DNA of 45,399 nucleotides, from positions 1-45,399 of the forward strand of contig CALLBD010000029.1 of assembly GCA_938001915.1 (NCBI GenBank), written 5' to 3'. Position numbers and translations under genes: made by a program. Shown here one piece after another: positions 1,542-17,080 of the stretch. How positions within the stretch are numbered: position 1 is the stretch's first letter; every line of letters starts with the position of its first letter. The notes under the pieces are model-generated. The model ran no database searches. It saw only the letters and a program-made list of their open reading frames with translations, and was not told the DNA's origin. The DNA comes from an uncultured Caulobacterales bacterium (lineage in GTDB: Bacteria; Pseudomonadota; Alphaproteobacteria; Caulobacterales; Maricaulaceae).

Positions 1542-1644
1542 ACTAAGTTTATTTATCTCAGATAAGCAGCCCTGACACTTTATCGAAGGGCCATCGACCC
1601 AGCATCCAACCGCCACCTATGCCCCGCGTCTTCGCCAGACGGGC

Positions 1645-1680
1645 AGGCTATTCGCTTTGCGCTTACGCTACGAATAGCCT
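1645..1680. terminator. 10-bp inverted repeat after methyltransferase gene
   Basis: AGGCTATTCG at 1645-1654 pairs perfectly with CGAATAGCCT at 1671-1680 across a 16-base loop. It lies about 100 bases after the methyltransferase stop. There is no T-run, so a factor-independent terminator is uncertain; it may be another structured element. Confidence 0.35.
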
Positions 1681-1782
1681 AGAGCTTGGCGAGTAGAAGA
1701 TCCTTTAGAGCTGGTTTTCCCAAACGCCAGTCTGGTTACATTTCTGGTGACAAATTACAGTCTATTGACATTTTCATGCTCT

Positions 1783-1958
1783 TTAAGTAATTGAAATACA
1801 TAACTTAATTAAGTTAAGGTCACCGCGTCCCCGGTGCGCCATTATCTTCAAAGTCCAACCACATAAGTCGTTGAAAAGACAGCATATTTCTTTTAGAAAC
1901 CTGTAGTCTCCTGAAATTTCTTCGATTTTTGTGCCACTTTTTGTGCTACAAATTGGGC
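1783..1958 (+). other. attL flanking repeats and putative arm sites
   Basis: Copies of a TTAAGTCATTGA-like motif lie 40 bases before (1783-1794) and 40 bases after (1863-1874) the core start. Further inward, TGTGCCAC (1930-1937), TGTGCTAC (1942-1949) and GGGCTAC (1955-1961 region) form a short series. The same two kinds of repeat surround the right core. They are candidates for integrase arm sites or sites of accessory bending proteins; roles are inferred from position. Confidence 0.5.
1823..1843 (+). repeat. Left attachment core (attL)
   Basis: A GC-rich 21-mer containing tccccggtgcgccatt in an AT-rich setting. The same sequence, with one change (G to A at the fifth base), recurs in the same orientation at 45260-45280. 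The GCGCCA ending resembles the 3' end of a tRNA gene, but no tRNA can be folded here. Confidence 0.75.
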
Positions 1959-1969
1959 TACAATGAACC

Positions 1970-3307
1970 GTGACTAGGAAATCGAACCATTACCTCAAAC
2001 GGCGCGGAGAGCGCTGGCATTATTATCGCCGCGTGCCGAAAAAATATGAAGCTATTGATACGCGCGGAACCATAAGGATCGCGCTGGATACAGACTGTCT
2101 GACCATAGCGCGTGAGAAACGCAACAGGCTGGTGGAAGCTGATGAAGCCTTATGGCAATCAAGCCTGATGAGTTTAAACGGTCAAGACGATGAGATTTGC
2201 GCTCTAAAGCAACGTCATAAGTTTGCGCAGAAACGTGCTCTCGCCTTGGGTTTTACATTTAAGCCGATTGATCAGCTCGTCACGTCTGACAATTTAATGG
2301 AGATTGTCGAGCGTGTTGAAGCGGTGGCGAAAGCCGATGACCAAGTCACCGAGGCTGAAGTTTTATTGGGGACAATAAAGGCCCCCAAGACGACACTCAG
2401 AGAGGCCCTGGACTTATACCTGAAAACACTCTCAATCGGTGAGCAGAAAGGTAAATCGCCTGATCAACTGCGTAAATGGCGACTTCCTCGGCAGAGAGCT
2501 ATTGAACACTTTATTGCAGTGTGTGGTAACCTTCCCATGGAAGAGATTGAACGGTCTCATGCGCGCCGCTTCTATGAATGGTGGGGTAAACGTCTTTCTC
2601 CTGACGATGGGTCAAAGGGTTTGAAGCCCAACAGCGCCAATCGTGATCTTGGGAATCTGAGAAAGCTCTATCGAACTTATTGGACCTATGAAGGCCAAGA
2701 AGAAAGGCAAAACCCCTTCCGTGAATTGCGCTTTTCAGATACTGACAGTGATCCAACACCACCCTTCTCAGATGAGTGGGTGAAGACCAAGATCTTGGCT
2801 CCGGGTGCCTTGGATGGATTGCACCAAGAAGCACAGCTCATCGTCAAAGTCTTGATTGAGACAGGTTGCAGACCAAGTGAGATAGCGAACCTCGAGCCAG
2901 AAGATATACATCTTGAAGCGGAGGTGCCATTTATCTCAATCAGGCCGAAAGCGAACCGGGAGTTAAAGTCGCGGGCTTCTAAGAGAGAAATACCTCTTGT
3001 GGGTATCGCTTTAGAAGCCATGCAAAAGGCTCCGAATGGCTTCCCGCATTACAAGGATAAAAGCTCTTTGCTTTCAGCGAGCTTGATGAAAGCGTTTAAA
3101 ACGCGGGGCCTGTTTGAGCATGAAGGTCAGCGGATTTATTCCTTCAGACATGCTTTTGAAAAGAGGATGCTGGAAGCAGGCCTAGACTATGGGCTGAGAT
3201 GCACATTAATGGGACACAAAAACAATCGTCCTGAATATGGGGATGGCGGCTCTCTAGAATTTAGAAAATCTGAATTGATGAAAATTGTTCATTCAATCGA
3301 TTTTTGA
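1970..3307 (+). CDS. Tyrosine recombinase/integrase 1
   Basis: A 445-residue site-specific recombinase expected to join and excise the element at the attachment cores. The catalytic domain shows Arg301 in GCRPSEIANL, a Lys region near 333-338, box II YSFRHAFEKRM (Arg393, His394, with Tyr390 where many family members have His), MGHK (His416) and the likely nucleophile Tyr423 in PEYGDGG. The N-terminal 25 residues (YLKRRGERWHYYRRVPK) look like the arm/DNA-binding domain. GTG at 1970 is chosen because the start aligns residue for residue with integrase 2; an ATG at 1963 is in another frame and stops after four codons. The gene lies just inside the left core. A related integrase is at 15479-16804. 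Confidence 0.92.
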   Translation: MTRKSNHYLKRRGERWHYYRRVPKKYEAIDTRGTIRIALDTDCLTIAREKRNRLVEADEALWQSSLMSLNGQDDEICALKQRHKFAQKRALALGFTFKPIDQLVTSDNLMEIVERVEAVAKADDQVTEAEVLLGTIKAPKTTLREALDLYLKTLSIGEQKGKSPDQLRKWRLPRQRAIEHFIAVCGNLPMEEIERSHARRFYEWWGKRLSPDDGSKGLKPNSANRDLGNLRKLYRTYWTYEGQEERQNPFRELRFSDTDSDPTPPFSDEWVKTKILAPGALDGLHQEAQLIVKVLIETGCRPSEIANLEPEDIHLEAEVPFISIRPKANRELKSRASKREIPLVGIALEAMQKAPNGFPHYKDKSSLLSASLMKAFKTRGLFEHEGQRIYSFRHAFEKRMLEAGLDYGLRCTLMGHKNNRPEYGDGGSLEFRKSELMKIVHSIDF

Positions 3308-3339
3308 GATAAAGTGACTATGCCCCTGAATAGAGTCAG

Positions 3340-6300
3340 TTAACGAACCACATCAATCAGCTTATCGAAACTATCTACCACATCGTACCGGACATTCGGT
3401 GATTGCATCTTTTCAAAGAACTTCCGGGCGCAATCAATCTTGCCGAGTTCTTTACCGCGCAAGTCCATAGACCGCATGGAGCCTTTGGTCTCGGCGACAA
3501 AATAGATATGCTTCACGCTGTCCTCTTCAAAAGCAATGGCCCAGTCCGGGTTATAGTTTCCGACTGGCGTCGGAATGTAGAAGCCTCCGGGCAGCTTGGC
3601 GTAGACGGCTACATCGCCACTGGCATCCAGCTCGCCGGAAAACTTACGCTCAATGCCGGAGTCGCTTACGACATAGTCATAAATATGTTTCTCGGCGGCA
3701 CGGGCGCGCTTCAGGCCATCCGGAATGATTGTAGATTTGGTGAAGATATCGGCGTCACTGAAAGTCTCGTCGAGCAGGTTGTAGCTGATATGTTCAACGA
3801 CAGCGGTCGCTTTTTCATCATCAATAACTTTAGAGACTTCAGAGATAAACATTTCCGGATTATCCCGATAGGTACTGAAGACGGCAGAGCTAATGCCTTG
3901 CAAAATTCGGCCCACGGTTTTGCGGGTCAAAGCCGTATGCTTGGCTATGTCTCCAACCAAATCATAGCGTACACTGGAAGGACCCAACGCCCGCTCCCCA
4001 AATGCTTTTTGATCTTCCCTCACTTCATTGCCAAAGCTCTCACCGCCCTGAAGATCATCGGCGCTGATTTGGGCGTTTTGTTCGCCACGTTTGACTGTAT
4101 AGGTCGTCGCTACGACCCGGACATTTTTGTCAATAGCTTTGATGCAATTGACTACCAATTCATCCGTATCAAAGTCGACCAGATAAACCGCCTTGCGGTT
4201 GATGGCCTTCCAAAGCGTTTGAAACTCTTTCTTAGCAAAATTGACTTCATGAAGCTTATTCTCAAGCTTGGCCAAATCGTCATCAATTTCCGGCAGGCTG
4301 GCATCCGATAAAACACTATCGATCAGTGCGAAGGCTTGCGCCGAATAGGGTTTCAACGCTTCGGGCAGATCTGCCAGCACGCCATTGTCTTTGTCCAATT
4401 GATAGGTCTCATTGAGATGATCATTATCATCCGTATAATCGTTCTTGATAAGGTAGCGATAAAGCGCGCGGGCCATCGCCTCATCAACCAGAACATTCTC
4501 TCCGCCTTCGACTTCGAATATCTTGCCGTTGAAATAGGCTTCATTGGCTTGTTTGGGGCGCGCTTTCAGGCTCTCACGCGTTTCCTTCTGAAAGCCGTCG
4601 ACAAAGTCCTCATAGCTCTCACTGGCGATAACGGTCAGGACATTGATATTGTGGACGATGGCGGGATCATCCATACGGTCGCCATATTTGTTCACGCAAA
4701 TCCGTAGGCCCCGCCCGACCTCTTGACGCCTGGAGATGTCATTACTGCTTTGTTTAAGCGTACAGATCTGGAAGACATTAGGATTATCCCAGCCTTCGCG
4801 TAGAGCCGAGTGGGAAAAGATGAACCGCACGGGTTCTTCAATGGATAAAAGCCGCGCCTTGTCCTTCAGGATAAGCTCATAAGCATCAGAGGCGTCTTCG
4901 CCCATGGCATGACCTGCAAAATCCCCGCGAGCGGTTTCCTTGGGATCCTTAAGCTTGCCTTTCTTGTCAACTGAGAAGTAGCCCTGATGAATTTGTGTCG
5001 CCTCATCACGGGCCAAATAAGCCATATAATCCGGATCATCTAAAACGCCGAGCTCATCGACGGCGCGACTATATTCTTCTTCAAAAATTCGCGCATATTC
5101 TCCTCCGGACGCGCCTTCGTCGTCGTAAACACGATATTTGGCAACGCTATCAATGAAAAACAGCGAGAGCACCTTAATGCCTTGAGAAAAGAGCCGTTTC
5201 TCTTTCTCCAAATGGGCACGTACGGTTTCCCGGATTTGGATACGGCGCAGTGTATCTTCGGTGACATCACCGTAAACCTGTCCAACTTTTATTGGGTCTT
5301 TGGCCGTGAAATGTACCTCGTTTCGATCTGCGCGAATATCTGAAATGATATAGTCCTCATAAGCGCCAATGCCCCCAGACGCATCAGCTAGGTTTGTCCC
5401 CTTATCAGCCCAGATAGATTTTCGTTTAACTGTTCCGCTGGCCGCTTTGCTCTCAATTCGCAGGCGTACTTGCGGTGGCCTGGTTGTGGAAACGCGAATT
5501 TGTTCGGCGTAAAGATAATCACTCGTCCCCGGCAAGTGACGGACCGTAATCCCGCGCACGGCAATCTTTTTGACCAGTTTCTTGTTGTAGGCATCCAGCG
5601 CATCTAAGCGGTGGACCAGATTGTGAACCGTTTTATGGGTCGCTGAATAGCGCAGCGTAAAAAGCGGATTAAACTTTGCCAGACTCTCAACCGTCTTCTT
5701 GCCCTCCATCTTCTGAGGCTCGTCCAGAATAAGAATGGGGCGATTGGCTGCAATCACATCTATCGGTCGGCGAGACTGAAACTCATCAAGCTCCATAAAG
5801 ATACGACGGGCATCTTTACCGGTCGCGTTAAAAGCCTGAGTATTGATAACCATGACCTGAATGCCAGCATTAGAACTAAAGCTCTCCAGCTTATCCAGAT
5901 GTTTGGAATTATAGATAAAGACATTGGCTTTAGTCTCATAATCGCTCTGAAAGTGGTCAGCCGTTTCAGAGAAAGTTTTATAGACGCCCTCGCGAATGGC
6001 GATGCTCGGCACCATGACGATGAACTTGCTCCAGCCATATCGCTTATTCAGCTCAAAGATGGTCTTGATATAGACATAGGTTTTACCCGTGCCCGTCTCC
6101 ATCTCCACGTCCAGATTAATCCCGCAGATTTTAGGCGCACCCAGCTTCCCGCCGTTAAACCAGTCCTTACCATAGGCGTCACGCAGGGCGCCCTCTCGAG
6201 TCATAGCGCGGTTCTTGGCAATACCTCGTTGTTGCACCCCATTGATATTCTTTAAAAAATCGCCTTCGGTGAGGCGGATTTCTGTATTGCGCAGGGCCTC

Positions 6301-6459
6301 AAGCTCATAATCTTGACGGATTTGCTCGTCTTTTTTGATAATGCCCGGGTCCATACGATAGCGAAACCCGCTCTCGCGTGGCTGGCCTTCAAAGCAATCG
6401 ACGACGGCGTCCACCGCCTCGCCCTGATAGGCCATATGTTTGAATATCTGACGGGTCAT
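3340..6459 (-). CDS. res: Type III restriction enzyme, Res subunit
   Basis: A 1039-residue ATP-dependent endonuclease subunit that works in the cytoplasm with Mod: Mod recognises an asymmetric site, Res translocates or slides and cuts. Helicase motifs are clear: Walker A GTGKT at 123-127, DEPQ box at 246-249, SATHK (motif III), and the motif V/VI stretch SHALREGWDNPN followed by QEVGRGLRI. The C-terminal part holds a PD-(D/E)XK nuclease core, NPDWAIAF followed by ETKG. Length is in the usual range for Res proteins. It is the last gene of the minus-strand defence operon, starting 5 bases after the mod stop, so it is translated last, after the protecting methylase. It ends tail to tail with integrase 1 with about 30 bases between. 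Confidence 0.95.
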   Translation of the reverse strand: MTRQIFKHMAYQGEAVDAVVDCFEGQPRESGFRYRMDPGIIKKDEQIRQDYELEALRNTEIRLTEGDFLKNINGVQQRGIAKNRAMTREGALRDAYGKDWFNGGKLGAPKICGINLDVEMETGTGKTYVYIKTIFELNKRYGWSKFIVMVPSIAIREGVYKTFSETADHFQSDYETKANVFIYNSKHLDKLESFSSNAGIQVMVINTQAFNATGKDARRIFMELDEFQSRRPIDVIAANRPILILDEPQKMEGKKTVESLAKFNPLFTLRYSATHKTVHNLVHRLDALDAYNKKLVKKIAVRGITVRHLPGTSDYLYAEQIRVSTTRPPQVRLRIESKAASGTVKRKSIWADKGTNLADASGGIGAYEDYIISDIRADRNEVHFTAKDPIKVGQVYGDVTEDTLRRIQIRETVRAHLEKEKRLFSQGIKVLSLFFIDSVAKYRVYDDEGASGGEYARIFEEEYSRAVDELGVLDDPDYMAYLARDEATQIHQGYFSVDKKGKLKDPKETARGDFAGHAMGEDASDAYELILKDKARLLSIEEPVRFIFSHSALREGWDNPNVFQICTLKQSSNDISRRQEVGRGLRICVNKYGDRMDDPAIVHNINVLTVIASESYEDFVDGFQKETRESLKARPKQANEAYFNGKIFEVEGGENVLVDEAMARALYRYLIKNDYTDDNDHLNETYQLDKDNGVLADLPEALKPYSAQAFALIDSVLSDASLPEIDDDLAKLENKLHEVNFAKKEFQTLWKAINRKAVYLVDFDTDELVVNCIKAIDKNVRVVATTYTVKRGEQNAQISADDLQGGESFGNEVREDQKAFGERALGPSSVRYDLVGDIAKHTALTRKTVGRILQGISSAVFSTYRDNPEMFISEVSKVIDDEKATAVVEHISYNLLDETFSDADIFTKSTIIPDGLKRARAAEKHIYDYVVSDSGIERKFSGELDASGDVAVYAKLPGGFYIPTPVGNYNPDWAIAFEEDSVKHIYFVAETKGSMRSMDLRGKELGKIDCARKFFEKMQSPNVRYDVVDSFDKLIDVVR

Positions 6460-6464
6460 AAAGC

Positions 6465-8495
6465 TTAGATAACTTTCATATCCGTATGACCATCTGTCAT
6501 TTGGGCGAAAAGCTGTCCGGCATTGATTTTCATATCATCAGAACCAAACCCATCGTCTCTGAACACAGCCCTGAGAGGCTTGCGCTCGGCCATAACTTTG
6601 ACGACGTCCTCAGATATATTCAGATCAAAACAGGCGGCCAGATCATCCTCCCCGACCCAGAACACAGTTTTATCGCCAATCTCTTCGCGAACAATAGGCA
6701 GCGATAAATCAACGCCCCAATCGAGCATAACCTGAAACAACAGATCTTCGGCTGTTCTGTCAGGTTTAATATGGTCTACGGCATCTAGCAGGCTGCCTTG
6801 CTCGAGCTCCCCTGGCGTATAATAGACATCATTCATATTGGAATTGTCGATTTTTAAGACGCGGAAACCTACGTCGAGTTTACCGATCTGATCTGGATTT
6901 TCGTCCAATATTTCATTGCCTGCTCGTCGTATCCTTTCCATTGAAAGCTTGGAAATATCCTCATAGCCAGACTTAAATGCTTCAGATGTAGGAGCAGTTT
7001 TTTGAGGCAGCTGAACCATAATAAAACAGCGCTTAACTCCATCTTCAGAACTGCACCTAAGAACAGCATCTGCGGAGGTCGATGAGCCCGCATAAAAATC
7101 TAGAACTATATCATTGTCTGACATATTGACCGACGAAATGAGTGCTTTCATCAGTTTAGTAGGTTTAGGATTTGAAAAGAAACTCTTACCATCGAAGTAT
7201 CTTTCTAACTCAACTCCGCCATCGCTTTTAAAGGACAATATTGAACGCAGTAAAAAGTAGTTGACGTCATCCAAAAATGTTATCGAACTAGGCTGAGTAT
7301 TCTCATCTGCCGCGAACCATATCTTGCCACAAATATAAGAACCATCATGTAGCTCTTCGATAGACGTATAATGCCCATTCGTTAGTCCCGCCGCCTGATC
7401 AAATGTTTCTTTCTTCCATCTCCACCCTCTATCAGGTATTTTGACTTCTTTTAAGGTTTTTGGGTGTAAAACAGCGTACCTCGGCCCATTCGTATCAGAA
7501 TTGGGCCAGCTCATATTAATCTTCCCCCACAACTCATATTTAGAATTCACCGAATTATAGAGAGTAATGCCCCTGTCAAAATTACGCTTTTTATAGAGTT
7601 TCTTTATTTCTGCTTCGGTCTCTTTCTGTGACTTATTCTTGCGTTTCGATTTGCTTAGTAGGTCATAAACCTCATCAAGGCCATCTTTTCTCATCCGCAG
7701 TTCAACTCTAATTTCAGTCGATTTAGTGTAAACAAGAACGAAATCGTGAATATTGCCGACGCCTTTATCATTCTTAGGAATTCTTTTGTTCCAAGTTATA
7801 CACTCGACAAAATTATCGCGCCCAAAAATTGCATCGCAAGATTTACGTAGATTTGTAAATTCCTGATTCCCAATACTAATAAAAATGATTCCATCATCGC
7901 GCAGCAAATTGCGTGCGAGCTTCAAGCGCGGATACATCATAGTCAGCCAGTCCGAATGATAGCGACCATTGCTTTCGGGGTTCGCGACTAGCTTACCGCC
8001 CTCTTCATCAACCTGTCCGCTATCTTCAAGATAGTCCTGCTTATCGCCCGTGAAATTATCCTTATAGATAAAATCCTTGCCCGTATTATAAGGCGGGTCG
8101 ATGTAGATCATTTTGACCTTGCCCAGATAGGTTTCCTGCAAAAGCTTGAGCGCGTCCAGATTATCGCCTTCGATGAACAGGTTTTTGGTTGTGTCAAAAT
8201 CAACACTTTCTTCGCGCACGGGGCGCAAGGTTTTCGTAATTGGTGTGTTCGCCGCCAGCATAGCTTCGCGCTTACCCGGCCAATCCAGCCGATACCGCTC
8301 CTGTGGCCCTTCGACGATAGAGTCTGAGAGCTCTTGCTTCAGCGCATCGAAATCTATGACATGGGTGAGCTTGCCATTTTCATCCCGCCCTTCGGTGACG
8401 ACATTCGGAAAAAGCTCCGCAATTCGGGCGACATTCTCATCCGTGATATTGGGCGTCGTCATGTCTAGTTTTTCGATATTTTGTTGATTGTCCAC
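6465..8495 (-). CDS. mod: Type III DNA-methyltransferase, Mod subunit
   Basis: A 676-residue beta-class N6-adenine methyltransferase: the catalytic DPPY (133-136, in YIDPPYNTGK) precedes the SAM-binding motif DFYAGS (466-471). The region between, about 230-400, is the target-recognition domain that sets the site for both modification and cleavage. That central part (about 7150-7850) is markedly more AT-rich than the two ends, as if the recognition domain had been swapped. Start is taken at GTG 8495, with an AGGA stretch upstream; an ATG 11 codons later (MTTPNITDEN) is the alternative. It begins 9 bases after the upstream gene's stop and is followed by res. Confidence 0.95.
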   Translation of the reverse strand: MDNQQNIEKLDMTTPNITDENVARIAELFPNVVTEGRDENGKLTHVIDFDALKQELSDSIVEGPQERYRLDWPGKREAMLAANTPITKTLRPVREESVDFDTTKNLFIEGDNLDALKLLQETYLGKVKMIYIDPPYNTGKDFIYKDNFTGDKQDYLEDSGQVDEEGGKLVANPESNGRYHSDWLTMMYPRLKLARNLLRDDGIIFISIGNQEFTNLRKSCDAIFGRDNFVECITWNKRIPKNDKGVGNIHDFVLVYTKSTEIRVELRMRKDGLDEVYDLLSKSKRKNKSQKETEAEIKKLYKKRNFDRGITLYNSVNSKYELWGKINMSWPNSDTNGPRYAVLHPKTLKEVKIPDRGWRWKKETFDQAAGLTNGHYTSIEELHDGSYICGKIWFAADENTQPSSITFLDDVNYFLLRSILSFKSDGGVELERYFDGKSFFSNPKPTKLMKALISSVNMSDNDIVLDFYAGSSTSADAVLRCSSEDGVKRCFIMVQLPQKTAPTSEAFKSGYEDISKLSMERIRRAGNEILDENPDQIGKLDVGFRVLKIDNSNMNDVYYTPGELEQGSLLDAVDHIKPDRTAEDLLFQVMLDWGVDLSLPIVREEIGDKTVFWVGEDDLAACFDLNISEDVVKVMAERKPLRAVFRDDGFGSDDMKINAGQLFAQMTDGHTDMKVI

Positions 8496-8504
8496 GGAAG
8501 CGTC

Positions 8505-9446
8505 CTACATTCGTCTTATATCATGATATTCTATTTCAGCTTCAATTGGCAAAAGGCTGTGAAGCGAAAGAAATTTGATTTGATTCTCTTTAAGATACAC
8601 GAAATTCAAACCATTTATCTGATTTTCTAAAAACCGACCAAAAATTACGAGGTCTACTTTTGGGAGAGCCAGAGGGTTTAGACGTATACGGAAACCTTTC
8701 TGGTAACGCGTAATATTCAGCACCTTACATAAAACATAAGGAAGTTCGCGCTCGGCACTATCTTCTCTGTTTGATATAATCTCTGGGGAGAGGCCGGGCT
8801 TTTCAAAAATGCCCTTTAAATCGGCTAGTTTTAGATTCGTTTGTCGTGACGATGCTGCTGCTGGCTCCGTATTAGAAGCAAGGCAAGTGTGCTTTGACCA
8901 AGTTGGTTCCAAAGTATCAAATAGCGCTTCTCCACCATAGGAAGACTGAAACTTATAAACCGCGTTGTTGCAGTCAAGACAAATATGGTTGGTCTGAATC
9001 GGGTTGCGTTTTTGTTCTTCAATGACTTTCAAATCTTGGGTTATTTGGGTGTTTTTCTTCTTACGCACTAAAACTAAAGGACGTCTCTCAGATACAGTTT
9101 TGGGGACGTGTCTCTGTGCCGCTTTTGCGGGCTGGCATTCCGTAATGATATCCGACATGCATTTATGGGTGACCCATTTATACCCGACCCTATCAAACCA
9201 CGCGTGCTCATGCTTCTCACGTGAATAATAATAGGTTGGCCTTGCACATTGTGGGCAAGGCGCATGACGTGTTAGGAATTGATCGCCCCAATTTATTCCT
9301 TTTTCAGCAACTAGCTTTGCAAAATCATAACGCTTTCGGATATCAGGAAGAGCATGCTGCAAACCTTTGAAATGGCCCCGAACAGTCGTCAAAACACCTG
9401 AAGCGCAAAGTCGTTCATGTTCGTTCCACCATACGTATCTAACCAC
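8505..9446 (-). CDS. Unrecognised protein with duplicated Cys/His zinc module
   Basis: I do not recognise this 313-residue protein. It contains two copies of one module with identical spacing: C64-x2-C67-x26-H94-x-C96 and C156-x2-C159-x26-H186-x-C188. Both also carry an FD pair exactly seven residues before a Trp that precedes HxC. This is an internal duplication with a 92-residue period and is most simply two zinc-binding folds. A basic stretch (VLVRKKK, about 125-131) links them; the C-terminal third (about 210-313) has no motif I know. It starts with GTG at 9446, overlapping the DUF4391 stop by 8 bases, and lies 9 bases before mod, so it is translated as part of the defence operon. DNA or RNA binding is a guess from the zinc modules. 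Confidence 0.85.
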   Translation of the reverse strand: MVRYVWWNEHERLCASGVLTTVRGHFKGLQHALPDIRKRYDFAKLVAEKGINWGDQFLTRHAPCPQCARPTYYYSREKHEHAWFDRVGYKWVTHKCMSDIITECQPAKAAQRHVPKTVSERRPLVLVRKKKNTQITQDLKVIEEQKRNPIQTNHICLDCNNAVYKFQSSYGGEALFDTLEPTWSKHTCLASNTEPAAASSRQTNLKLADLKGIFEKPGLSPEIISNREDSAERELPYVLCKVLNITRYQKGFRIRLNPLALPKVDLVIFGRFLENQINGLNFVYLKENQIKFLSLHSLLPIEAEIEYHDIRRM

Positions 9447-10089
9447 GGGTCAACTCCGTAAGATATTCGGAAGTTTTCTTAAGTTCCCGATTGAATTCCA
9501 CTCGCCGGTTAAATTGCTTTTCTTTGCGTATCTTGGTTTGCAAAGCTTCGCATCTCTGTTCCAGAGATTTGATCTCCTCAATGCGAGCGTTGAGCTCAAA
9601 TAGAGTCTCACCATCGATGGCTTCAATCGGCATCAAGCTTTGTAATATCTGGCTGTAAAGCCCCTGAAGATTAGTCGCGACAGGTAAGGCTTGCCTCTCG
9701 CTCTGTTCTGGGACCCACATAGACGCATAATAATGTTTGCTAGGCTTGCCGCACTGCCATTTGGGTGTCGCCATGGCTTTTTGTTTGTCGCCGTGTGCCA
9801 ATTCAAAAATAATTGGAAACGCAATTGCCTTATCGATGTGCCTGAGAACGTCATCGTCTAAGTGTGCGCTTTTGAGCCGGATGTTGAAGATTTGAATTTC
9901 CGGGACATTTTCGGACGCCGATAGATTTATGGTCTCAGGAGCTAGTTTATAAGTCCAGCGTACTTGCTCTACTTGTGCCGAAAATAGGTCTCGAATACGA
10001 GGCGTCGCTTTGTGATAGGAAAACAGCTTGGTTTTGGAGACCATACGGTCAAAACGCGCCCGCTTTGGATATGCGAAGAGTGACGACAA
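9439..10089 (-). CDS. DUF4391 domain protein
   Basis: A 216-residue protein matching the DUF4391 family as I know it: an opening LFAYPKRARFDR, the core WTYKLAPETINL, then EIQIFNIRLK, AIAFPIIFEL, and a C-terminal coiled-coil-like basic segment ending in KEKQFNRRVEFNRELK. The family has no assigned chemistry but is commonly found beside PLD-like SNF2 helicases and type III Mod/Res genes, which is exactly this setting. The start is TTG at 10089, directly after the stop of the DUF262 gene with no gap, and its end overlaps the next gene, so translation is coupled on both sides. A structural or adaptor role is plausible; it is not demonstrated. Confidence 0.8.
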   Translation of the reverse strand: MSSLFAYPKRARFDRMVSKTKLFSYHKATPRIRDLFSAQVEQVRWTYKLAPETINLSASENVPEIQIFNIRLKSAHLDDDVLRHIDKAIAFPIIFELAHGDKQKAMATPKWQCGKPSKHYYASMWVPEQSERQALPVATNLQGLYSQILQSLMPIEAIDGETLFELNARIEEIKSLEQRCEALQTKIRKEKQFNRRVEFNRELKKTSEYLTELTRG

Positions 10090-11952
10090 CTAATCTTCCT
10101 CATCATATTTCTGAACTGGCGGTCCTTTCCATATATTATTTGCTCTAGTAAAGAGTACGGCGCTTCGTTGGGTTATCGTCGCTTCGTCCCAATCGTCAAA
10201 ATTCTGAAGTTCCCGATTTAATGCTAAACTACTATGTGATTTTACCTCAGGCATTCGTTTGGAATAACCTGCGTTTTTCAACTTCGAATTTAGCGGCTGT
10301 GTGAGCAAGGTAAGGTTTCCAATCCGATGGATTTTTTCGGAACGCTTGTTTTCTCGTTGGATTCTCTCCAGAGAAGGTTGGTTTTCATCTTCGTTTTCAA
10401 AACCTGGAACAGGCCAATGGATCTTCCACTTTTGCGGCATGATATGTTCAATAGTTAGGGCGCTTTTAATCTCTATATCTTCACTGAGTGAGCTCCTCAT
10501 GGAGACTTCAATGGCTTGAAGTAGGTAATTTAAACGCTTCGCACGTGCCGGCTTATATTGATCCCTGTTGACGAATCCATCTTCAAACTCTTGATCAGTG
10601 GGCCATCGATTTATGTCGGACTGCCCAGACCCCAAGAGGTTTTTAAAACGATCGAAGTTTATGGGCTCTAAATTTTCCCGCTCTCTCAGCTTCTTGATAA
10701 GATCTACAAAGGTATTATTGTAATTTTTAGTGGTTAAACCACATATATCCCGTCTCAAAATAAAGCTTTTCAGTACATCAAGAGAAAGTTGAAGATCATT
10801 ATCAGTCATTAATGCTTCGGTCGCCAAAAATACTACAAGTGGCATCGCTGTCGATACATCAAATGCGTCTGCAAATATTCCAAACTCCCCAACTGAATCA
10901 TCGGAATTCTTGGTGAACAATCTCTCTACGACCTGAGAGCTAGTCCTTAGTGATTTCAATTCGTATTCAACATCGGTGAATGGGGTTTCCAAAATGATCC
11001 ATTCTTTATACTCATCGTAAAGTCTGTCCACCGATACATTCTTTGCTGTTTTCATGGACAAATGATCAACAAATAGCCAATCGACGCGCTCTTCTTTTCT
11101 TCGACCTCGTGGTTCAGATTGCCCCCAATATCCGCTATCCAAATCAAGCCAATATTTCTCGTATAGCCGATCCGAATTCAACTTCGCTTTATTTGCTGAT
11201 TGTCCTGCAGCGCGCTGAAAAATAAAGTTTCTCATCAGATCGCTAGCCTTTAAATCTACTCCTCGGGAATTAAGGGTTTCAAAAATCACTTGCGGGTCAT
11301 CATTATCTTCTAGTTCAATCGAAACTATGGCTAGCCCAGACCTTAAGGCCTCAAAAACTTTTTCAACGACAAACTCCGCCTCCTCGACCCTTTCTTCCAC
11401 AAAGGATTCAAGTTCAGATTTTAGATACTCATAAGCTAAAATGGATTTTCGTACATAACCATCTATTTCAGGAGATTGTAGCCCCAGTTCGGAGATATCG
11501 GTCCCAGGGGCTATTATTTTGACAAAAGCCTTTCGGTCCATATATGATGGCCAGAGTTTATATCTCTCAATTCTTTCATTCTCCATGATGCCTGTATTTA
11601 AAAGGTACTTATCGATTTCTGAAGTGTAGACCGTTTCATGTAGTTGCGAGACACTACGTAAGGCAGCTAAAAAAAGTTGGAATGTTGTCAGTCTTTGTTG
11701 ACCGTCAATTACCTCCCAAGTTGAAACTTCGCGACCATATGTTTTGATTTGAGCAATAACAGCTGCACCCAAAAAATGAGGAGCTTCGAGTTGGCTTTCA
11801 GCGAGAAGTTTTTGTGCGATACGTTTAATATCTTTCCATAACATCTCTATCTGCGGTTTGACTGGCCAAGCATATTGTCTTTGGTAAAGAGGAACGACAT
11901 ATCTTTTCTTTCCGTCGAAAAGCTCGATAATAGATCTTTTAAAAGGTTTCAA
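10090..11952 (-). CDS. DUF262-DUF1524 (GmrSD-like) restriction protein
   Basis: A 620-residue single-chain protein. The N-terminal DUF262 half shows VPLYQRQYAWP, the DGQQRLTT motif and FETLNSRGVDLKASDL; the C-terminal DUF1524 half shows the HNH-like IEHIMPQ and the conserved IGNLTLLTQPLNSKL. In the GmrSD family (type IV restriction, attack on modified phage DNA) the DUF262 part supplies nucleotide-dependent control and the DUF1524 part cuts DNA. Both catalytic signatures are present, so it looks active. It starts at TTG 11952, two bases after the helicase stop, and abuts the DUF4391 gene. Base composition is visibly more AT-rich than the conjugation genes. Its insertion into a type III cassette is the odd feature. 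Confidence 0.92.
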   Translation of the reverse strand: MKPFKRSIIELFDGKKRYVVPLYQRQYAWPVKPQIEMLWKDIKRIAQKLLAESQLEAPHFLGAAVIAQIKTYGREVSTWEVIDGQQRLTTFQLFLAALRSVSQLHETVYTSEIDKYLLNTGIMENERIERYKLWPSYMDRKAFVKIIAPGTDISELGLQSPEIDGYVRKSILAYEYLKSELESFVEERVEEAEFVVEKVFEALRSGLAIVSIELEDNDDPQVIFETLNSRGVDLKASDLMRNFIFQRAAGQSANKAKLNSDRLYEKYWLDLDSGYWGQSEPRGRRKEERVDWLFVDHLSMKTAKNVSVDRLYDEYKEWIILETPFTDVEYELKSLRTSSQVVERLFTKNSDDSVGEFGIFADAFDVSTAMPLVVFLATEALMTDNDLQLSLDVLKSFILRRDICGLTTKNYNNTFVDLIKKLRERENLEPINFDRFKNLLGSGQSDINRWPTDQEFEDGFVNRDQYKPARAKRLNYLLQAIEVSMRSSLSEDIEIKSALTIEHIMPQKWKIHWPVPGFENEDENQPSLERIQRENKRSEKIHRIGNLTLLTQPLNSKLKNAGYSKRMPEVKSHSSLALNRELQNFDDWDEATITQRSAVLFTRANNIWKGPPVQKYDEED

Positions 11953-11954
11953 TT

Positions 11955-14900
11955 TTACCCCCCGTATTCATAAACAACGACAAACCCCAAAAGCTCAAAA
12001 TCATCTAGCCCTGCAATAGAGTCGAGGAGAGCCGTTGTGCGTTCTCCGGTGAACAAGCTATCGATGTCTTTATCTTCTTTGACGTCAATCATAGACCGAA
12101 TGGCCTGATCCAGAAGATCAGAATAGGCCTGCATGTTTCGGCCATCTTTGGTGTCTTTGTTGAAAGGCTCCACGACATCTGCGACCGGCTCTGAATAGGG
12201 TTTGCAGGCCGCTCTGGCCAAATCAAGCAAATGCTTGGCCCGAGAGTGCTCGGCGATGATGTCGCCGTCCTGCCCGATATAAACCAGATAAAAGGGATGG
12301 AGCCTGTTATGGCCGCCAATGTCAGGTGTCGAGGCCTTTATGTTTCTCATCGCGAATATCACGCCCGGGACGAGGCCTTTCTCAGGGGCTGCCGGAACCA
12401 CCGTGTGAATACCATTTGGTAGCTTGGGGATGTCAGGGTGGTCTTTGAGGAAACGAACAAGGTCCATGCAGAAATCATTCAAGCCAAGGTCCGTGATTGA
12501 CACGCCGGTCTTTAGATCTTCAAGCTCAATCACTTCTTCCTGTAGGCGGCGGAGCTGTTCTTTGCGGTATTCAGTATCATTAGCTTTGGCAGAAAGGACG
12601 TTATCGTCTCCGGTGGCCGACACGTCTGCAATGACCATCCGCGACTCAACACGGTCTTTCAGGTTAATATATTCATCTAGCGAAATATCTGGCCAGTAAT
12701 TGACCAGTTGTATGTCCGTGTTGGTTGAGCCTATTCGGTCGACACGGCCAAAGCGCTGGATGATGCGCACCGGGTTCCAGTGAATGTCGTAATTAATGAC
12801 GATATCGCAGTCCTGAAGGTTTTGACCCTCAGAGATACAATCCGTCCCAACTAGCACGTCAATCTCACGAGGCTCATTTTCCAAGATCAGGTCTTTCTTT
12901 TTGGAGCGGGGCGAGAACAGCGTCATCACTTCCTGAAAGTCATAGGATGTTCCCAGTGTCGATTTCGGGTTGCCCGACCCGCCCGTTACGGAGGCCGAAT
13001 GGAGCTGAAATTGATCCGTCACTTCAGCCGAGAGATTTTTGTAAAGATAATCCGCCGTATCGGAGAAGGCCGTGAATATAAGTGCTTTTTTATTGCCCGG
13101 ATTAAAGGGGTCTAGAATTTTGTCTTTTACGCTTTGGATCAGGTGTTGAAGTTTGAAGTCATCTTCAGGGCTGATCTTTTCCATTTCGTGCAAAAGGTGT
13201 GACAAAAGGTGTTGGTCGCCCTGGAGCTCATGCTTCCAGCTTGGTAAGTCGATATCGGCAAGATCAATTTTAATCTTTCCACCAATCATTTGTTCCTCAG
13301 ATGTTGGCAGCTCATCATCATCGGGATCGAGGTCATCAATTATATTGTCGATAGACTCTATTTTTCCTGTTGTCTCAAAGGCAGCAATTTTCTCAAGCGT
13401 TGAAAGATAAAGGTTATTGAGCTTTTCAAGCGTTAGTCGAAAAGCATGGACAGAACTCTCAAGACGCTTCAGCAAGTTAACAGTCATTAGACTCTGCAGA
13501 GCCTTTTCGCGGTCCATTTGCGTAAGGCGGCCTTTGCCTTCGCGAACTTCAGTATCGTACATCTCTTCATATTTTTTGAGACGGCTTGGTAGAACATAAC
13601 TGATTGGCGCGTAGACTGACATTTTGACTTGGCTAAGGTCAGTGTAGATTTCGTTGAAGCTCATCACATCTGGGCGATTGGTCAGCTTACACCGATGTGA
13701 AACCGGCTGTCGTCTTTTTGGGAAATTGCCAATATCCGCCGTATCGTAATAGGTTGTGATGTGTTTACGCGATCGGGCAATGGTTACGCTATCCAAGAGT
13801 TTAAAGAAATCAAAGTCCAGACGCTCAAGAATGAGCTCCGCTGTGCGCTCTTCCGTAGGGAGTTTGGACCAGTCATTGAACACAGCTTGCGCGCGTTTGA
13901 ATATTTCTTCGATTGGCCGTTCCGTGCCGAGCTTTTTGGAAAGCGTGGAAGACTCACCTTCATAGGCGAGCGCCAATTGATTGCGTAGATCAGTGAAACG
14001 ATTATTCACCGGTGTGGCTGAGAGCATAAGGACTTTGGTCTTGACGCCTTCTCGAATGACCATGCGCATAAGCTTTTCGTAGCGGGTCTCACGATCGTTA
14101 ACCGCCTCATTATTTCTGAAGTTATGCGACTCATCGATAACGACCAGATCGTAATTGCCCCAATTGACCTGATTAAGCGGGAGGCCGAGGCTTTCCCCGC
14201 TCGTCCGGCTGAGGTCCGTGTGGCAAAGTATGTCGTAATTCAGGCGGTCTTTGGCGAGAATATTTGTTTTCAGATTGCTGTTATAGGTCTGCCAATTTCC
14301 CGCGAGTTTTTTTGGGCAAAGGACAAGCACAGCCTTGTTACGTAGCTCGTAATATTTGATAACGCCCAGAGCGGTAAAGGTTTTACCCAGACCAACACTG
14401 TCGGCAAGTATACAGCCATTATAGGTCTCGAGCTTGTTGATGAGACCAACAGCCGCGTCTTTCTGGAAATTATATAGTGTATTCCAAACGACGCTATCCT
14501 GATATCCTGTCAAATCATTCGGTAAGACGTCTTCATTGAGGTCCTCAAGAAACTCATTGAAAATATTATAAAGGATCAGGAAATAAACTTTGTCTGGCGC
14601 GTTTTCCTTATAGATATTTTCAATGTGGGCGCAAAGTTGTTCTGTGACATCCTGGAGCTTTGTCGGATCACGCCAAATATTTTCAAACAAGTCTAAATAG
14701 CTTTTAGACATTGTTGGTTCGTCAAGGCAATTTACCATATTGGAAACCGCGTTGCCCTGTTCGTAGCCAAGGTCTACCGCTGTGAATCCTTGTATGGGCA
14801 TATAAGCAGTCGCATCGCTACCTGGGATGCATGCAAATTGCTGCATCGGAGCTTGCGTTGTGTTCGATTTAAACCGTGCCTTTCTCCTGATCCAATCTGC

Positions 14901-15224
14901 ACATTCTTTAGCGATGGCTTTTTGAGTAAGTTGGTTCTTTAACCGAACTTCAAATTCAGTTCCGTAAAGTCCACGCTCTCTATCCCTCTTCGGGATTGTA
15001 AATTCTCTACGCTCTTTTCTGAGTTTGTCGGATTGTTCATTTGGAACAAAGGTCGGAGCCGTGAAAATAAATTCAAGGGATTCGACCTTTTCTAATTCTT
15101 TCTTGAGTTCTTCAAAGGCATAAATCGAAAAACAAGATGCCGCAATTTGCAACTTCGAACCTTTTCGAAGCCGGTTTTTGAGATCATCTCCAAAGAGAAT
15201 GTTGATGTTATCAAGCGTCTTCAA
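11955..15224 (-). CDS. SNF2-family helicase with N-terminal PLD-like domain
   Basis: A 1089-residue protein. The first 165 residues form the PLD-like domain of this helicase family (IAASCFSIYAFEEL, GTEFEVRLKNQLTQ, AYMPIQGFTAVDLGY); I see no clear HxK(x4)D catalytic pair, which seems usual for the family. The helicase follows: Walker A GLGKT (278-282), DESHNF (from 364), SATPVNN, and the C-terminal lobe with GTDCISEGQNLQ and IIQRFGRVDRIG. Such proteins are nucleic-acid translocases in restriction-like operons. It is the first gene of the six-gene defence operon; the start is TTG at 15224 because no ATG or GTG lies upstream in frame before a stop nearby, and the family N-terminus fits. About 250 bases separate it from integrase 2. 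Confidence 0.92.
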   Translation of the reverse strand: MKTLDNINILFGDDLKNRLRKGSKLQIAASCFSIYAFEELKKELEKVESLEFIFTAPTFVPNEQSDKLRKERREFTIPKRDRERGLYGTEFEVRLKNQLTQKAIAKECADWIRRKARFKSNTTQAPMQQFACIPGSDATAYMPIQGFTAVDLGYEQGNAVSNMVNCLDEPTMSKSYLDLFENIWRDPTKLQDVTEQLCAHIENIYKENAPDKVYFLILYNIFNEFLEDLNEDVLPNDLTGYQDSVVWNTLYNFQKDAAVGLINKLETYNGCILADSVGLGKTFTALGVIKYYELRNKAVLVLCPKKLAGNWQTYNSNLKTNILAKDRLNYDILCHTDLSRTSGESLGLPLNQVNWGNYDLVVIDESHNFRNNEAVNDRETRYEKLMRMVIREGVKTKVLMLSATPVNNRFTDLRNQLALAYEGESSTLSKKLGTERPIEEIFKRAQAVFNDWSKLPTEERTAELILERLDFDFFKLLDSVTIARSRKHITTYYDTADIGNFPKRRQPVSHRCKLTNRPDVMSFNEIYTDLSQVKMSVYAPISYVLPSRLKKYEEMYDTEVREGKGRLTQMDREKALQSLMTVNLLKRLESSVHAFRLTLEKLNNLYLSTLEKIAAFETTGKIESIDNIIDDLDPDDDELPTSEEQMIGGKIKIDLADIDLPSWKHELQGDQHLLSHLLHEMEKISPEDDFKLQHLIQSVKDKILDPFNPGNKKALIFTAFSDTADYLYKNLSAEVTDQFQLHSASVTGGSGNPKSTLGTSYDFQEVMTLFSPRSKKKDLILENEPREIDVLVGTDCISEGQNLQDCDIVINYDIHWNPVRIIQRFGRVDRIGSTNTDIQLVNYWPDISLDEYINLKDRVESRMVIADVSATGDDNVLSAKANDTEYRKEQLRRLQEEVIELEDLKTGVSITDLGLNDFCMDLVRFLKDHPDIPKLPNGIHTVVPAAPEKGLVPGVIFAMRNIKASTPDIGGHNRLHPFYLVYIGQDGDIIAEHSRAKHLLDLARAACKPYSEPVADVVEPFNKDTKDGRNMQAYSDLLDQAIRSMIDVKEDKDIDSLFTGERTTALLDSIAGLDDFELLGFVVVYEYGG

Positions 15225-15478
15225 TTTAATGGCCTAATTTAATTCATTAGATATTTTGCAAGAGTCTTTACCACGTAGCCATACTGACATGAGACGTGAA
15301 GTTAAGTCTGAACGATTTCACAATAATAGCCAACCCTTCAATCCTTCAGTGGTGCGTTGCAGTAAAACAAGATACACAGATATGATCTATAGGCCACTGC
15401 AAACTCGCTTAAAAGAGATATGGCGGCAATTAACCCTAAATGATTGTGTTTGGTCGTCTTGTATGATTGTCGGTGAAA
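15225..15478. other. Intergenic gap upstream of defence operon
   Basis: This gap should hold the promoter of the minus-strand defence operon. I see no convincing promoter boxes, hairpin or gene; the AT-rich stretch just upstream of 15224 (taaattaaattag-like on the minus strand) is the likeliest place for the -10 region. Confidence 0.3.
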
Positions 15479-16804
15479 TCATCTCAATCGGTGAATTATT
15501 TTAAGGAGTTCATCTCTACGAAACTCTAGTGACCCGCCATCGCCATATTGAGGTCTGTCGTTTTTATGGCCCATGAGGGTACATCTGAGACCATAGTCCA
15601 GCCCGGCTTCGAGCATGCGTTTTTCAAAGCTGTGGCGGAAGCTATAGATGCGGTGTTTTGGGGTGGGGAACAAGCCGCGCCGTTTGAACGCCGCTCCGAG
15701 CAGATTTGAGAGGACTGTCGCATTATCAGCATATTTCGGAAATCCTCCGGGAGCCCGCTTCATGGCCTCTAGCGCGACACCGATCAGTGGGATGTCGCGT
15801 TTTGAGGATGGAGTTTTGAGTTCTCTCTTTTGGGTGGGCCGAATCTTGATATGCGGGACTTCGTGGTTGAGGCAAATATGTTCGGGCTGGAGGTTGACTA
15901 TCTCGCTAAGGCGGCAGCCTGTTTCGATTAGGATGGGCACGACAAGTTGAGCTTCTTTGTTGAGGCCGTCTAGAGCGCCTTTTGCTAGAATTTTGGTTCT
16001 GACCCATTCATCCGTGAAGACGGGCGTTGTTGGCTCATATCGTGACTGGAAGCGCAGATTACGGAAAGGATTGGGGCGGTCTTCTTGTCCGTAATAGGTC
16101 CAGTAGAGGCGAAATATCTTTCTTAAATGCCCAATCTTCTTATTCGCGGTATTCGGTTTGTAAGGTGAATTGTCAGGAATGATCTGGTCACGCCAATGCT
16201 GATGAAAGCTCACTGCATGGTGGCGTGTGATTTCATCTAGGCTCAAGGAGCCGCAAACGTCTTCAAAGGCTTCGATGGATCGTTCGCGTTCCTCAATCCA
16301 TTTTCTGCGCTGTTCTTTTGATTTGGAGGTAATCTCATGCGGCGCGATGGTATCGACATAAAGTCTCAGTGCATCCCTAAAGTCGTGTTCTGGTGCTGCG
16401 ATTAGGCCGAAAACCGCTTGGACGTAGGATTTGTCGTTTGTGAACTCTCTTATGCTGTCCAGCCTTGCGAGCATATCTGGCAAATCTTGGTCCTCGATCA
16501 GGCCTGCCAGGGGTTTATAGCTATATCCTAGCATCCCGCAGCGCGCTCGCGCCAACTGATAATCATCTTCAGCTGATTGATGCTGCTTCGCACTTTTACC
16601 GTAAAAGGCCAGCTTGCCCCATTCAGTTTCGAGTTCCTTATTGAGCAGATCACGACGGAGCCGGGCTTCATCAATATTTTTTGTTTTAAGCGCTTTGCGG
16701 ATTCTTCGTCTAGGATATACGTGCCAAACGCCTTTGGGCACACGCCGAAAATAATACCAAAGGTCCCCACGTCTTTCGAGATATTGATTTTTATTTTTTG
16801 GCAT
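15479..16804 (-). CDS. Tyrosine recombinase/integrase 2
   Basis: A 441-residue integrase clearly paralogous to integrase 1: both share the N-terminus (QYLERRGDLWYYFRRVPK here), ETGCRLSEIVNLQPE, YSFRHSFEKRMLEAGLDYG, LMGHKNDRPQYGDGG and the end SLEFRRDELLKI. The catalytic set (Arg in GCRLSE, Arg in SFRHSF, His in MGHK, Tyr in PQYGDGG) is complete. ATG at 16804 is chosen because it aligns exactly with the start of integrase 1 and has a GAAAGG ribosome site upstream; a longer frame from 16849 exists. No copy of the attachment core lies near it. It may be the integrase of an older element that carried the defence genes, or a second functional recombinase. Confidence 0.92.
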   Translation of the reverse strand: MPKNKNQYLERRGDLWYYFRRVPKGVWHVYPRRRIRKALKTKNIDEARLRRDLLNKELETEWGKLAFYGKSAKQHQSAEDDYQLARARCGMLGYSYKPLAGLIEDQDLPDMLARLDSIREFTNDKSYVQAVFGLIAAPEHDFRDALRLYVDTIAPHEITSKSKEQRRKWIEERERSIEAFEDVCGSLSLDEITRHHAVSFHQHWRDQIIPDNSPYKPNTANKKIGHLRKIFRLYWTYYGQEDRPNPFRNLRFQSRYEPTTPVFTDEWVRTKILAKGALDGLNKEAQLVVPILIETGCRLSEIVNLQPEHICLNHEVPHIKIRPTQKRELKTPSSKRDIPLIGVALEAMKRAPGGFPKYADNATVLSNLLGAAFKRRGLFPTPKHRIYSFRHSFEKRMLEAGLDYGLRCTLMGHKNDRPQYGDGGSLEFRRDELLKIIHRLR

Positions 16805-16837
16805 TTGCAACCTTTCTTTTATGCTTAAACTGGATGT

Positions 16838-17080
16838 TTGATTGTCCATAGGAAGAGCCGAAACTTGCGCTATTTAAAAACTATAAAAAACAGCACGGTG
16901 ACACTCCCCGATCTTTATCGGGGAATGGAAACCGCTGTGGCTTTGATCGATAAATATGGTGAAGCCTACTGGCCTATCTTTGAATGGCTGGAAGCTGAAA
17001 TTGATGACCGTGAAAGCCGTGCGGCTAGGCTGGAAAAGTTTCGTCAATCTCCACATGCGGCAAAGGCGTCTCAGTCGTGA
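16838..17080 (+). CDS. Small WPIFE-motif protein, copy 1
   Basis: An unassigned protein of at most 80 residues. Its core (VALIDKYGEAYWPIFEWLEAEI) matches that of the small protein at 43015-43227 (ASLINAGNDNLWPIFEKIEKEL), so these are two members of one small family in the same element. The start is uncertain: TTG at 16838 gives the full frame, while GTG at 16909 would keep only the shared part. It overlaps the phosphoesterase gene by GTGA, which supports it being translated. An 8-bp hairpin (16905-16924) lies within or just before it. Function unknown. Confidence 0.6.
   Translation: MIVHRKSRNLRYLKTIKNSTVTLPDLYRGMETAVALIDKYGEAYWPIFEWLEAEIDDRESRAARLEKFRQSPHAAKASQS
16897..16924. repeat. GGTGACAC motif followed by perfect 8-bp hairpin
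   Basis: GGTGACAC (16897-16904) is followed by TCCCCGAT (16905-16912), a CTTT loop and ATCGGGGA (16917-16924). Related sequence (TTTATCGGGG, GGTGTCACC) occurs in the oriT-like region at 27884-27900. It lies between the divergent integrase 2 and WPIFE genes. Confidence 0.45.

What the first reader, a model, noticed from the sequence alone, without database searches (positions are those of the whole stretch)
3340..15224. Six-gene composite defence operon: type III R-M fused with a GmrSD-like nuclease and a zinc-module protein
Seen: six minus-strand genes with gaps of 2, 0, -8, 9 and 5 bases, so they are one translationally coupled unit. Known: PLD-SNF2 helicase, DUF4391 and type III Mod/Res form a recurring cassette; DUF262-DUF1524 proteins are type IV (modification-dependent) nucleases. 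Inference: building a modification-dependent nuclease and a double zinc-module protein into the cassette would let one operon attack both unmodified and foreign-modified DNA, with the helicase as a shared motor or sensor. I know no named system with this exact gene set.
Basis: partly seen in the sequence, partly recalled or inferred. Interest (0 to 1): 0.85.

Follow-up and report, generated by a model that had tools for sequence, protein, structure and literature searches.

The report
Restriction operon carrying two passenger genes
A common but little-described four-gene bacterial DNA-defence cassette has, in this mobile element, picked up two extra genes: a nuclease of a family known to cut chemically modified phage DNA, and a rare zinc-module protein.

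Summary
In detail: six tightly packed minus-strand genes, 3340-15224. Reading them as one six-gene system does not. Across 105 loci the constant unit is four genes: SNF2 helicase, DUF4391, Mod, Res; 84 loci (window included) show all four, always in this order. The other two look like passengers. None of the other 104 loci holds the zinc gene. Gaps over 250 bases between core genes occur in 44 of 84 loci, filled by changing families: Fic, RhuM, Schlafen-type, YhcG nuclease, Abi_2, SIR2/HerA, GmrSD. GmrSD relatives occur in 10 other loci, mostly elsewhere in or near the cassette; seven compared are 21-29% identical to the window's. Passenger GC3 is 0.37-0.38, core 0.46-0.55. The two-layer idea (unmodified plus modified DNA) is plausible but has precedents, TgvAB and BrxU. 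New leads: the helicase's supposed PLD part lacks HKD; DUF4391 is near-constant, confidently modelled and without significant structural match; the zinc family also occurs beside Mod in a second type III-like operon.

The parts
11955..15224 (-). core gene 1: SNF2-type helicase, 1089 aa; N-terminal part possibly a degenerate PLD domain, no HKD motif
   Evidence: (PADLOC C3a139 'HKD+Snf2' matches residues 178-1085 only)
10090..11952 (-). passenger 1: GmrSD-family (DUF262 + DUF1524) nuclease, 620 aa, motifs DGQQR and EHIMP present
9439..10089 (-). core gene 2: DUF4391 protein, 216 aa
8505..9446 (-). passenger 2: zinc-module protein, 313 aa, two Cys/His modules, member of a family without a Pfam entry
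6465..8495 (-). core gene 3: type III Mod methyltransferase, 676 aa, DPPY motif
   Evidence: (EcoP15I Mod E 1.8e-61)
3340..6459 (-). core gene 4: type III Res, 1039 aa, GTGKT, DEPQ, PDW...ETK
   Evidence: (EcoP15I Res E 6e-67)
1970..3307 (+). flanking tyrosine recombinase (left), converging with Res
15479..16849 (-). flanking tyrosine recombinase (right), 50% identical to the left one

Best explanation
It is an extended type III restriction-modification operon with two embedded passenger genes, carried by a conjugative element. Core: helicase, DUF4391, Mod, Res. Mod marks an adenine in a host site; Mod-Res moves along and cuts DNA that lacks the mark (established for EcoP15I-type enzymes, recalled; inferred here). 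The helicase plus DUF4391 is a near-constant extra part of this branch, most likely an ATP-driven motor or sensor working with Mod-Res on foreign DNA; it is probably not a nuclease itself, because no HKD motif is present (inferred). The GmrSD-family gene between helicase and DUF4391 is an independent modification-dependent nuclease that catches phages whose modified bases escape Res (inferred from relatives). The zinc-module protein beside Mod is a second passenger, probably a nucleic-acid-binding or protein adaptor (weakest step). Shown: gene content, order, constancy of the core, changing identity of the inserts, different composition. Not shown: any activity.
For: Core order in 84 of 84 loci with all four genes; in the phylum sample 22 of 23 DUF4391 genomes also hold a Res relative at E 1e-60. 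Gaps over 250 bases in 44 of 84 loci, 13 of them at two or more slots; with a limit of 600 bases 38 and 11. Inner-slot ORFs of 140 aa or more form 26 clusters, of which 23 were examined; many match defence or toxin families. Passengers have GC3 0.370 and 0.379, core genes 0.462-0.551. Outside the window a single-sequence search finds 7 GmrSD relatives, 6 of them downstream of the helicase (length-corrected p 0.0045). EcoP15I is the best match by sequence among solved structures for both Mod and Res.
Against: No functional data. The GmrSD enrichment rests on few cases: two of the six are 88% identical to each other (L095, L097), one is antisense about 1.7 kb past Res (L103), and one relative lies upstream (L113). 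The passengers are packed as tightly as the core (gaps -8 to 9), so coupling with the core complex cannot be excluded. In G327, which has the cassette, a zinc-family gene lies about 14 kb from the helicase gene, so the two are not wholly strangers. The motor/sensor role of helicase and DUF4391 is a guess; DUF4391 has no significant structural match. The model of the helicase N-terminus is poor (pLDDT 56). L036 has DUF4391 without Mod or Res in the 9.6 kb downstream.
Confidence: 0.7

Rival explanations
1. One six-gene composite system: all six proteins work together, with the helicase as shared motor for both Res and GmrSD.
For: Gaps of 2, 0, -8, 9 and 5 bases on one strand; L075 also has a DUF262 protein in the helicase/DUF4391 slot.
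Against: 0 of 104 other loci have the zinc gene; most GmrSD relatives sit in other positions; different GC3; [quoted passage not shown]
Confidence: 0.1
2. Passengers are guard or back-up effectors: kept quiet by the restriction complex and set free when a phage inhibits it, as PrrC in the EcoprrI operon.
For: Many inserts beside Mod and Res are toxin-like families: Fic, RhuM, Schlafen/AlbA, Abi_2, zeta-like kinase. PrrC precedent (passage); Fic/RhuM genes in R-M neighbourhoods with PrrC-like genes (passages).
Confidence: 0.12
3. Passengers are chance insertions of mobile defence genes with no selected link to the core.
For: The window lies on a conjugative element with two tyrosine recombinases and part of another restriction gene; passengers differ in composition.
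Against: The listed inner-slot ORFs of 140 aa or more are all on the operon strand (the picker favoured that strand 1.3-fold), clusters recur in several loci, and gaps are commoner at the second and third slot (20 and 35 of 84) than at the first (6 of 84).
Confidence: 0.08

Closest known systems
Type III R-M (EcoP15I, EcoP1I)
   Same: Mod and Res subunits and motifs; EcoP15I is the best match by sequence among solved structures for both.
   Different: EcoP15I/EcoP1I have no helicase or DUF4391 partner (recalled); here these two precede Mod in 84 of 84 loci with all four genes.
TgvAB embedded in the VPI-2 type I R-M operon of Vibrio cholerae (PMC11411939; abstract and passages seen)
   Same: DUF262/DUF1524 modification-dependent genes inside an R-M operon; complementarity for modified and unmodified phage proposed by its authors.
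   Different: Two-protein system inside a type I operon; here one chain with both domains inside an extended type III operon.
BrxU in the pEFER BREX island (PMC8565348; abstract seen)
   Same: GmrSD-family enzyme beside a methylation-based system; complementary protection shown there.
   Different: Host system is BREX; a PDB sequence search with the window protein at E 0.01 returned only 9jfl, a DUF262 protein, and not BrxU.
Hma-embedded HEC-05/HEC-06 and PDC candidates ('guilt by embedding', Payne et al.; original not seen, known through passages)
   Same: Window GmrSD matches HEC-06 models (best 215 bits); several inserts match PDC or HEC models.
   Different: HEC genes were found in Hma operons; the best PADLOC match of the window protein is 'Orf5' (305 bits), then mREase_IV (281), then HEC-06.
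BREX-related Type-2 systems with HKD helicase (PMC12839542; passages seen)
   Same: Helicase with an N-terminal HKD region beside a DNA methyltransferase.
   Different: DUF3780 and a DUF499-type set-up, HKD part named as the primary effector; here no HKD motif, and Res is present.

Membership tests
Type III R-M | Mod and Res subunits with N6-methylase, DEAD-type helicase and PD-ExK nuclease motifs, adjacent genes | tested here: met
Type III R-M | asymmetric site, one-strand methylation, ATP-dependent cleavage | not testable with these tools
   needs methylome sequencing and biochemistry
GmrSD type IV enzymes | DUF262 (DGQQR) plus DUF1524 (EHxxP) in one chain | tested here: met
   both domains above Pfam cut-off; motifs at residues 83 and 502
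GmrSD type IV enzymes | cuts only modified DNA | not testable with these tools
   no biochemistry
PLD/HKD nuclease-helicase | H-x-K-x4-D catalytic motif | tested here: not met
   absent from the window helicase; of 100 helicases 7 hold a loose H-x-K match in their first 300 residues, none at the strand where I expect it by alignment (position inferred)
PLD/HKD nuclease-helicase | PLD fold of the N-terminal part | tested here: inconclusive
   pLDDT 56; no Foldseek match at E 0.001, NgoAVII R protein ranked 3 and SauUSI ranked 6; no PLD family in Pfam at E 10 for 8 N-termini
DISARM (DrmD) | NCBIfam DrmD equivalog score | tested here: not met
   144.5 bits against a cut-off of 610
BREX / BREX-related | PglZ, BrxC or DUF499 partners in the operon | tested here: not met
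   no such Pfam match among the six genes
Hma | HmaA helicase, methylase and ATPase together | not tested
   helicase scores 78 bits with an HmaA model in a PADLOC scan; no full test made
Six-gene composite system | the same six genes recur together | tested here: not met
   0 of 104 other loci hold the zinc gene; some loci are cut by contig ends

The most novel reading that the evidence does not exclude
Helicase-DUF4391-Mod-Res is an unrecognised, widespread class of type III defence in which a nuclease-dead PLD-SNF2 motor and a new-fold protein are obligate partners, and which acts as a docking operon whose slots collect interchangeable second-line effectors, including a zinc-module adaptor shared with a second type III-like operon.
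Probability: 0.4. Interest if true: 0.65.

Novelty: new variant of a known kind. Interest (0 to 1): 0.45.

Why it matters
Mod and Res are recognised as type III R-M, but PADLOC gave no model match for DUF4391 and lists the helicase under another label. The counts here suggest that helicase and DUF4391 are about as constant as Mod and Res in this branch, so the working unit is probably four genes. The slots beside Mod and Res are a place to look for new defence genes: 44 of 84 loci have a gap over 250 bases there or in the first slot, and 2 of 20 insert clusters scanned had no Pfam match at all. The zinc-module family is one such lead. If GmrSD works alone here, the operon is a natural two-layer defence against unmodified and modified phage.

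Tried and rejected
Rejected: a fused R-M/nuclease protein (separate ORFs). Rejected: DISARM or BREX membership. Rejected: PLD nuclease as effector of the helicase. Tried without result: the window zinc protein in Pfam, PADLOC, NCBIfam, PHROGs and PDB sequences and in viral contigs; PDB profile search with the helicase N-terminus (no PLD protein up to E 5); PDB search with DUF4391 (one match at E 0.76); Foldseek of DUF4391 against PDB and viral models (nothing at E 0.001). No repeat that looks like an attachment site was found in 1500-17200.

Zinc-protein contexts: 13 of 34 plasmid records were opened. Beside or near defence-type genes: BREX in L028 and L142, DUF499/DUF1156 set in L143, Shedu about 7 kb off in L144, methyltransferases in L145, a restriction endonuclease in L147, PD-ExK and UvrD genes in L150. 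No clear link: L146, L148, L149 (mal operon), L151, L152, L153. So the defence link is a tendency without a control. In the second type III-like operon the zinc gene is present in G382 (L138 = L166) and G504 (L154, found through the zinc gene itself), but in only 1 of the 22 genomes, 28 loci, sampled by that Mod (several of these loci are cut short). Three of 26 inner insert clusters were not run through a family library.

Papers: nine searches. 'DUF4391' gave 1 paper, seen as a listing only. I recognised none in the listings that describes the four-gene core; nearly all were seen as listings, and the library lacks most subscription papers.
Full report
WHAT IS THERE. Six minus-strand ORFs occupy 3340-15224 with gaps of 2, 0, -8, 9 and 5 bases. 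Pfam and PADLOC name five of them: SNF2-type helicase, GmrSD (DUF262 + DUF1524), DUF4391 (Pfam only), type III Mod, type III Res; the 313-aa protein at 8505-9446 has no family in Pfam, PADLOC, NCBIfam or PHROGs. Expected motifs are present in Mod (DPPY), Res (GTGKT, DEPQ, PDW...ETK) and GmrSD (DGQQR, EHIMP); which residues matter is recalled, except EHxxP, which states. EcoP15I is the best match by sequence among solved structures for Mod and Res.

SETTING. The operon lies between two tyrosine recombinases that are 50% identical, in a stretch of 40-49% GC, while 18001-45399 has 53.7%. That rest carries a relaxase-like protein, a TraG-type coupling protein and several Trb/VirB proteins, so the island rides on a conjugative element (plasmid or integrated, not decided).

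THE CONSTANT UNIT IS FOUR GENES. With the window this makes 105 loci, of which 100 hold the helicase and 84, window included, all four core genes (a gene in pieces counted as one). In 84 of 84 the order is helicase, DUF4391, Mod, Res. The 21 others mostly end at a contig edge or at the edge of the fetched stretch; L036 (DUF4391 without Mod or Res in 9.6 kb) and L121 (a fragment of Mod, no Res in 2.8 kb) may be true exceptions. Of 23 DUF4391 genomes 22 also hold a Res relative at E 1e-60, and 15 further genomes hold such a Res without DUF4391, mostly more distant ones. The 80 loci were chosen by likeness to the window's helicase family, so they are not a random sample.

THE OTHER TWO GENES LOOK LIKE PASSENGERS. 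Among the 84 loci, gaps over 250 bases occur between helicase and DUF4391 in 6, DUF4391 and Mod in 20, Mod and Res in 35; 44 loci have at least one, 13 at two or more slots. A gap over 600 bases in the first slot is found only in the window and L075, and both hold a DUF262 protein there. The inner slots of all loci hold 67 operon-strand ORFs of 140 aa or more in 46 loci, in 26 clusters. Representatives of 20 clusters went through Pfam and 10 proteins through PADLOC: Schlafen/AlbA with HATPase (a cluster of 13), RhuM, YhcG nuclease, zeta-like kinase, Fic, Bro-N, KilA-N, Abi_2, SIR2 with HerA, UvrD, an AAA_15/AAA_21 ATPase, DUF2130, DUF2779, DUF3800, and PADLOC candidates of PDC and HEC type. 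L103 and L111 had no Pfam match, and L068 only matches below cut-off. GC3 of the window's passengers is 0.370 and 0.379, of the core genes 0.462-0.551.

GMRSD. A single-sequence search over both strands finds seven relatives outside the window: six downstream of the helicase (L039 between DUF4391 and Mod; L051, L093, L095, L097 right after Res; L103 antisense further on) and one upstream (L113); corrected for the length searched p is 0.0045. A profile, trained on operon-strand hits, adds L059, L075 and L102. Seven of these proteins compared with the window's are 21-29% identical over the aligned part; L095 and L097 are 88% identical to each other. This fits repeated recruitment. On an Enterobacter asburiae plasmid the same core holds an ATP-dependent endonuclease and a DUF2130 gene inside and two DUF262 genes after Res; E. 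coli and Methylotuvimicrobium plasmids show the bare core; an Acinetobacter plasmid has an IS1-like element between Mod and Res.

ZINC-MODULE PROTEIN. None of the 104 other loci has it (profile search). Relatives: 3 of 397 other phylum genomes (module-level matches), 1 of 384 other class genomes (at most 7 candidates per genome were scored, so misses are possible), 34 plasmid records and 1 viral contig. The four relatives checked by pattern have one module, the window's has two. One relative, in G327, lies about 14 kb from that genome's own helicase cassette, outside the operon. In two genomes (L138, L154) the gene lies between a type III-like Mod and a UvrD-type helicase, with a Res-like gene upstream; yet of 22 genomes sampled by that Mod only one has it. 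Plasmid contexts are mixed. I read it as an accessory of mobile, often defence-rich DNA; its action is unknown.

HELICASE AND DUF4391. The label 'HKD+Snf2' comes from a PADLOC model that matches residues 178-1085, not the N-terminal part. At the strand where H-x-K would be expected (inferred from the alignment), 89 of 100 helicases have Q at one position and 78 of 100 Q at the next; the seven loose H-x-K matches lie elsewhere. A weak model (pLDDT 56) ranks NgoAVII R protein third, phosphatidylserine synthase fourth and SauUSI sixth, none significant; that the first two belong to the PLD superfamily is recalled, for SauUSI says so. A degenerate PLD domain is likely, not proven. DUF4391 is modelled at pLDDT 95 from 51 sequences, an alpha/beta domain followed by two long helices, with no PDB or viral match at E 0.001.

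HOW IT LIKELY WORKS AND WHAT IS KNOWN. Best reading: Mod-Res with helicase and DUF4391 restricts DNA lacking the host mark, GmrSD cuts modified DNA independently, and the zinc protein is an adaptor of unknown use. The two-layer idea was shown for BREX with BrxU (PMC8565348, abstract) and proposed for TgvAB embedded in a type I operon (PMC11411939, abstract and passages), whose authors also cite GmrSD-like genes in Hma operons. DarTG2 inside a type I operon (PMC12255303, passages) and PrrC in ecoprrI (PMC12707154, passage) are further cases. Embedding of defence genes in R-M operons is thus known; its extent in this four-gene type III branch, and the branch itself, I did not find described in nine searches, seen mostly as listings.

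VERDICT. Observation confirmed; interpretation partly supported; a new variant of a known kind, interest 0.45.

Noticed in passing
window 36-1541 (+): Part of a type IIG restriction enzyme-methyltransferase (matches the C-terminal half of the PADLOC model) at the contig edge, beside the island.
   Followed up: no
window 1970-3307 (+) and 15479-16849 (-): Two DUF6538-type tyrosine recombinases, 50% identical, flank the operon; no flanking repeats found. Of 104 other loci only L102 has a relative at E 1e-5.
   Followed up: partly
window 22641-44575: ParB-like, relaxase-like, TraG and Trb/VirB genes, then a HipA-like protein at 43271-44575: the window is part of a conjugative element.
   Followed up: partly
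L138 9607-10254 and L154 9925-10608: Zinc-module gene between a type III-like Mod and a UvrD-type helicase in a second, different operon.
   Followed up: partly
L136 8880-9419 (genome G327): Zinc-family gene about 14 kb from that genome's own helicase-DUF4391-Mod-Res cassette, near a SNF2-type helicase and an RNase_H/AAA nuclease-type gene.
   Followed up: partly
L045 12250-13905 and 12 relatives: Schlafen/AlbA plus HATPase protein of about 551 aa is the commonest insert, 12 of 13 between Mod and Res.
   Followed up: no
window 17077-17862 (+): Metallophosphoesterase matching the PDC-S10 defence candidate model (44 bits), near the island.
   Followed up: no
L111 15453-17174 and L121 15444-17192: Insert family of about 573 aa without a Pfam match (L111 scanned), beside a relative of L068's protein that matches HEC-07; the DUF4391 ORF there is extended to about 720 aa.
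   Followed up: no
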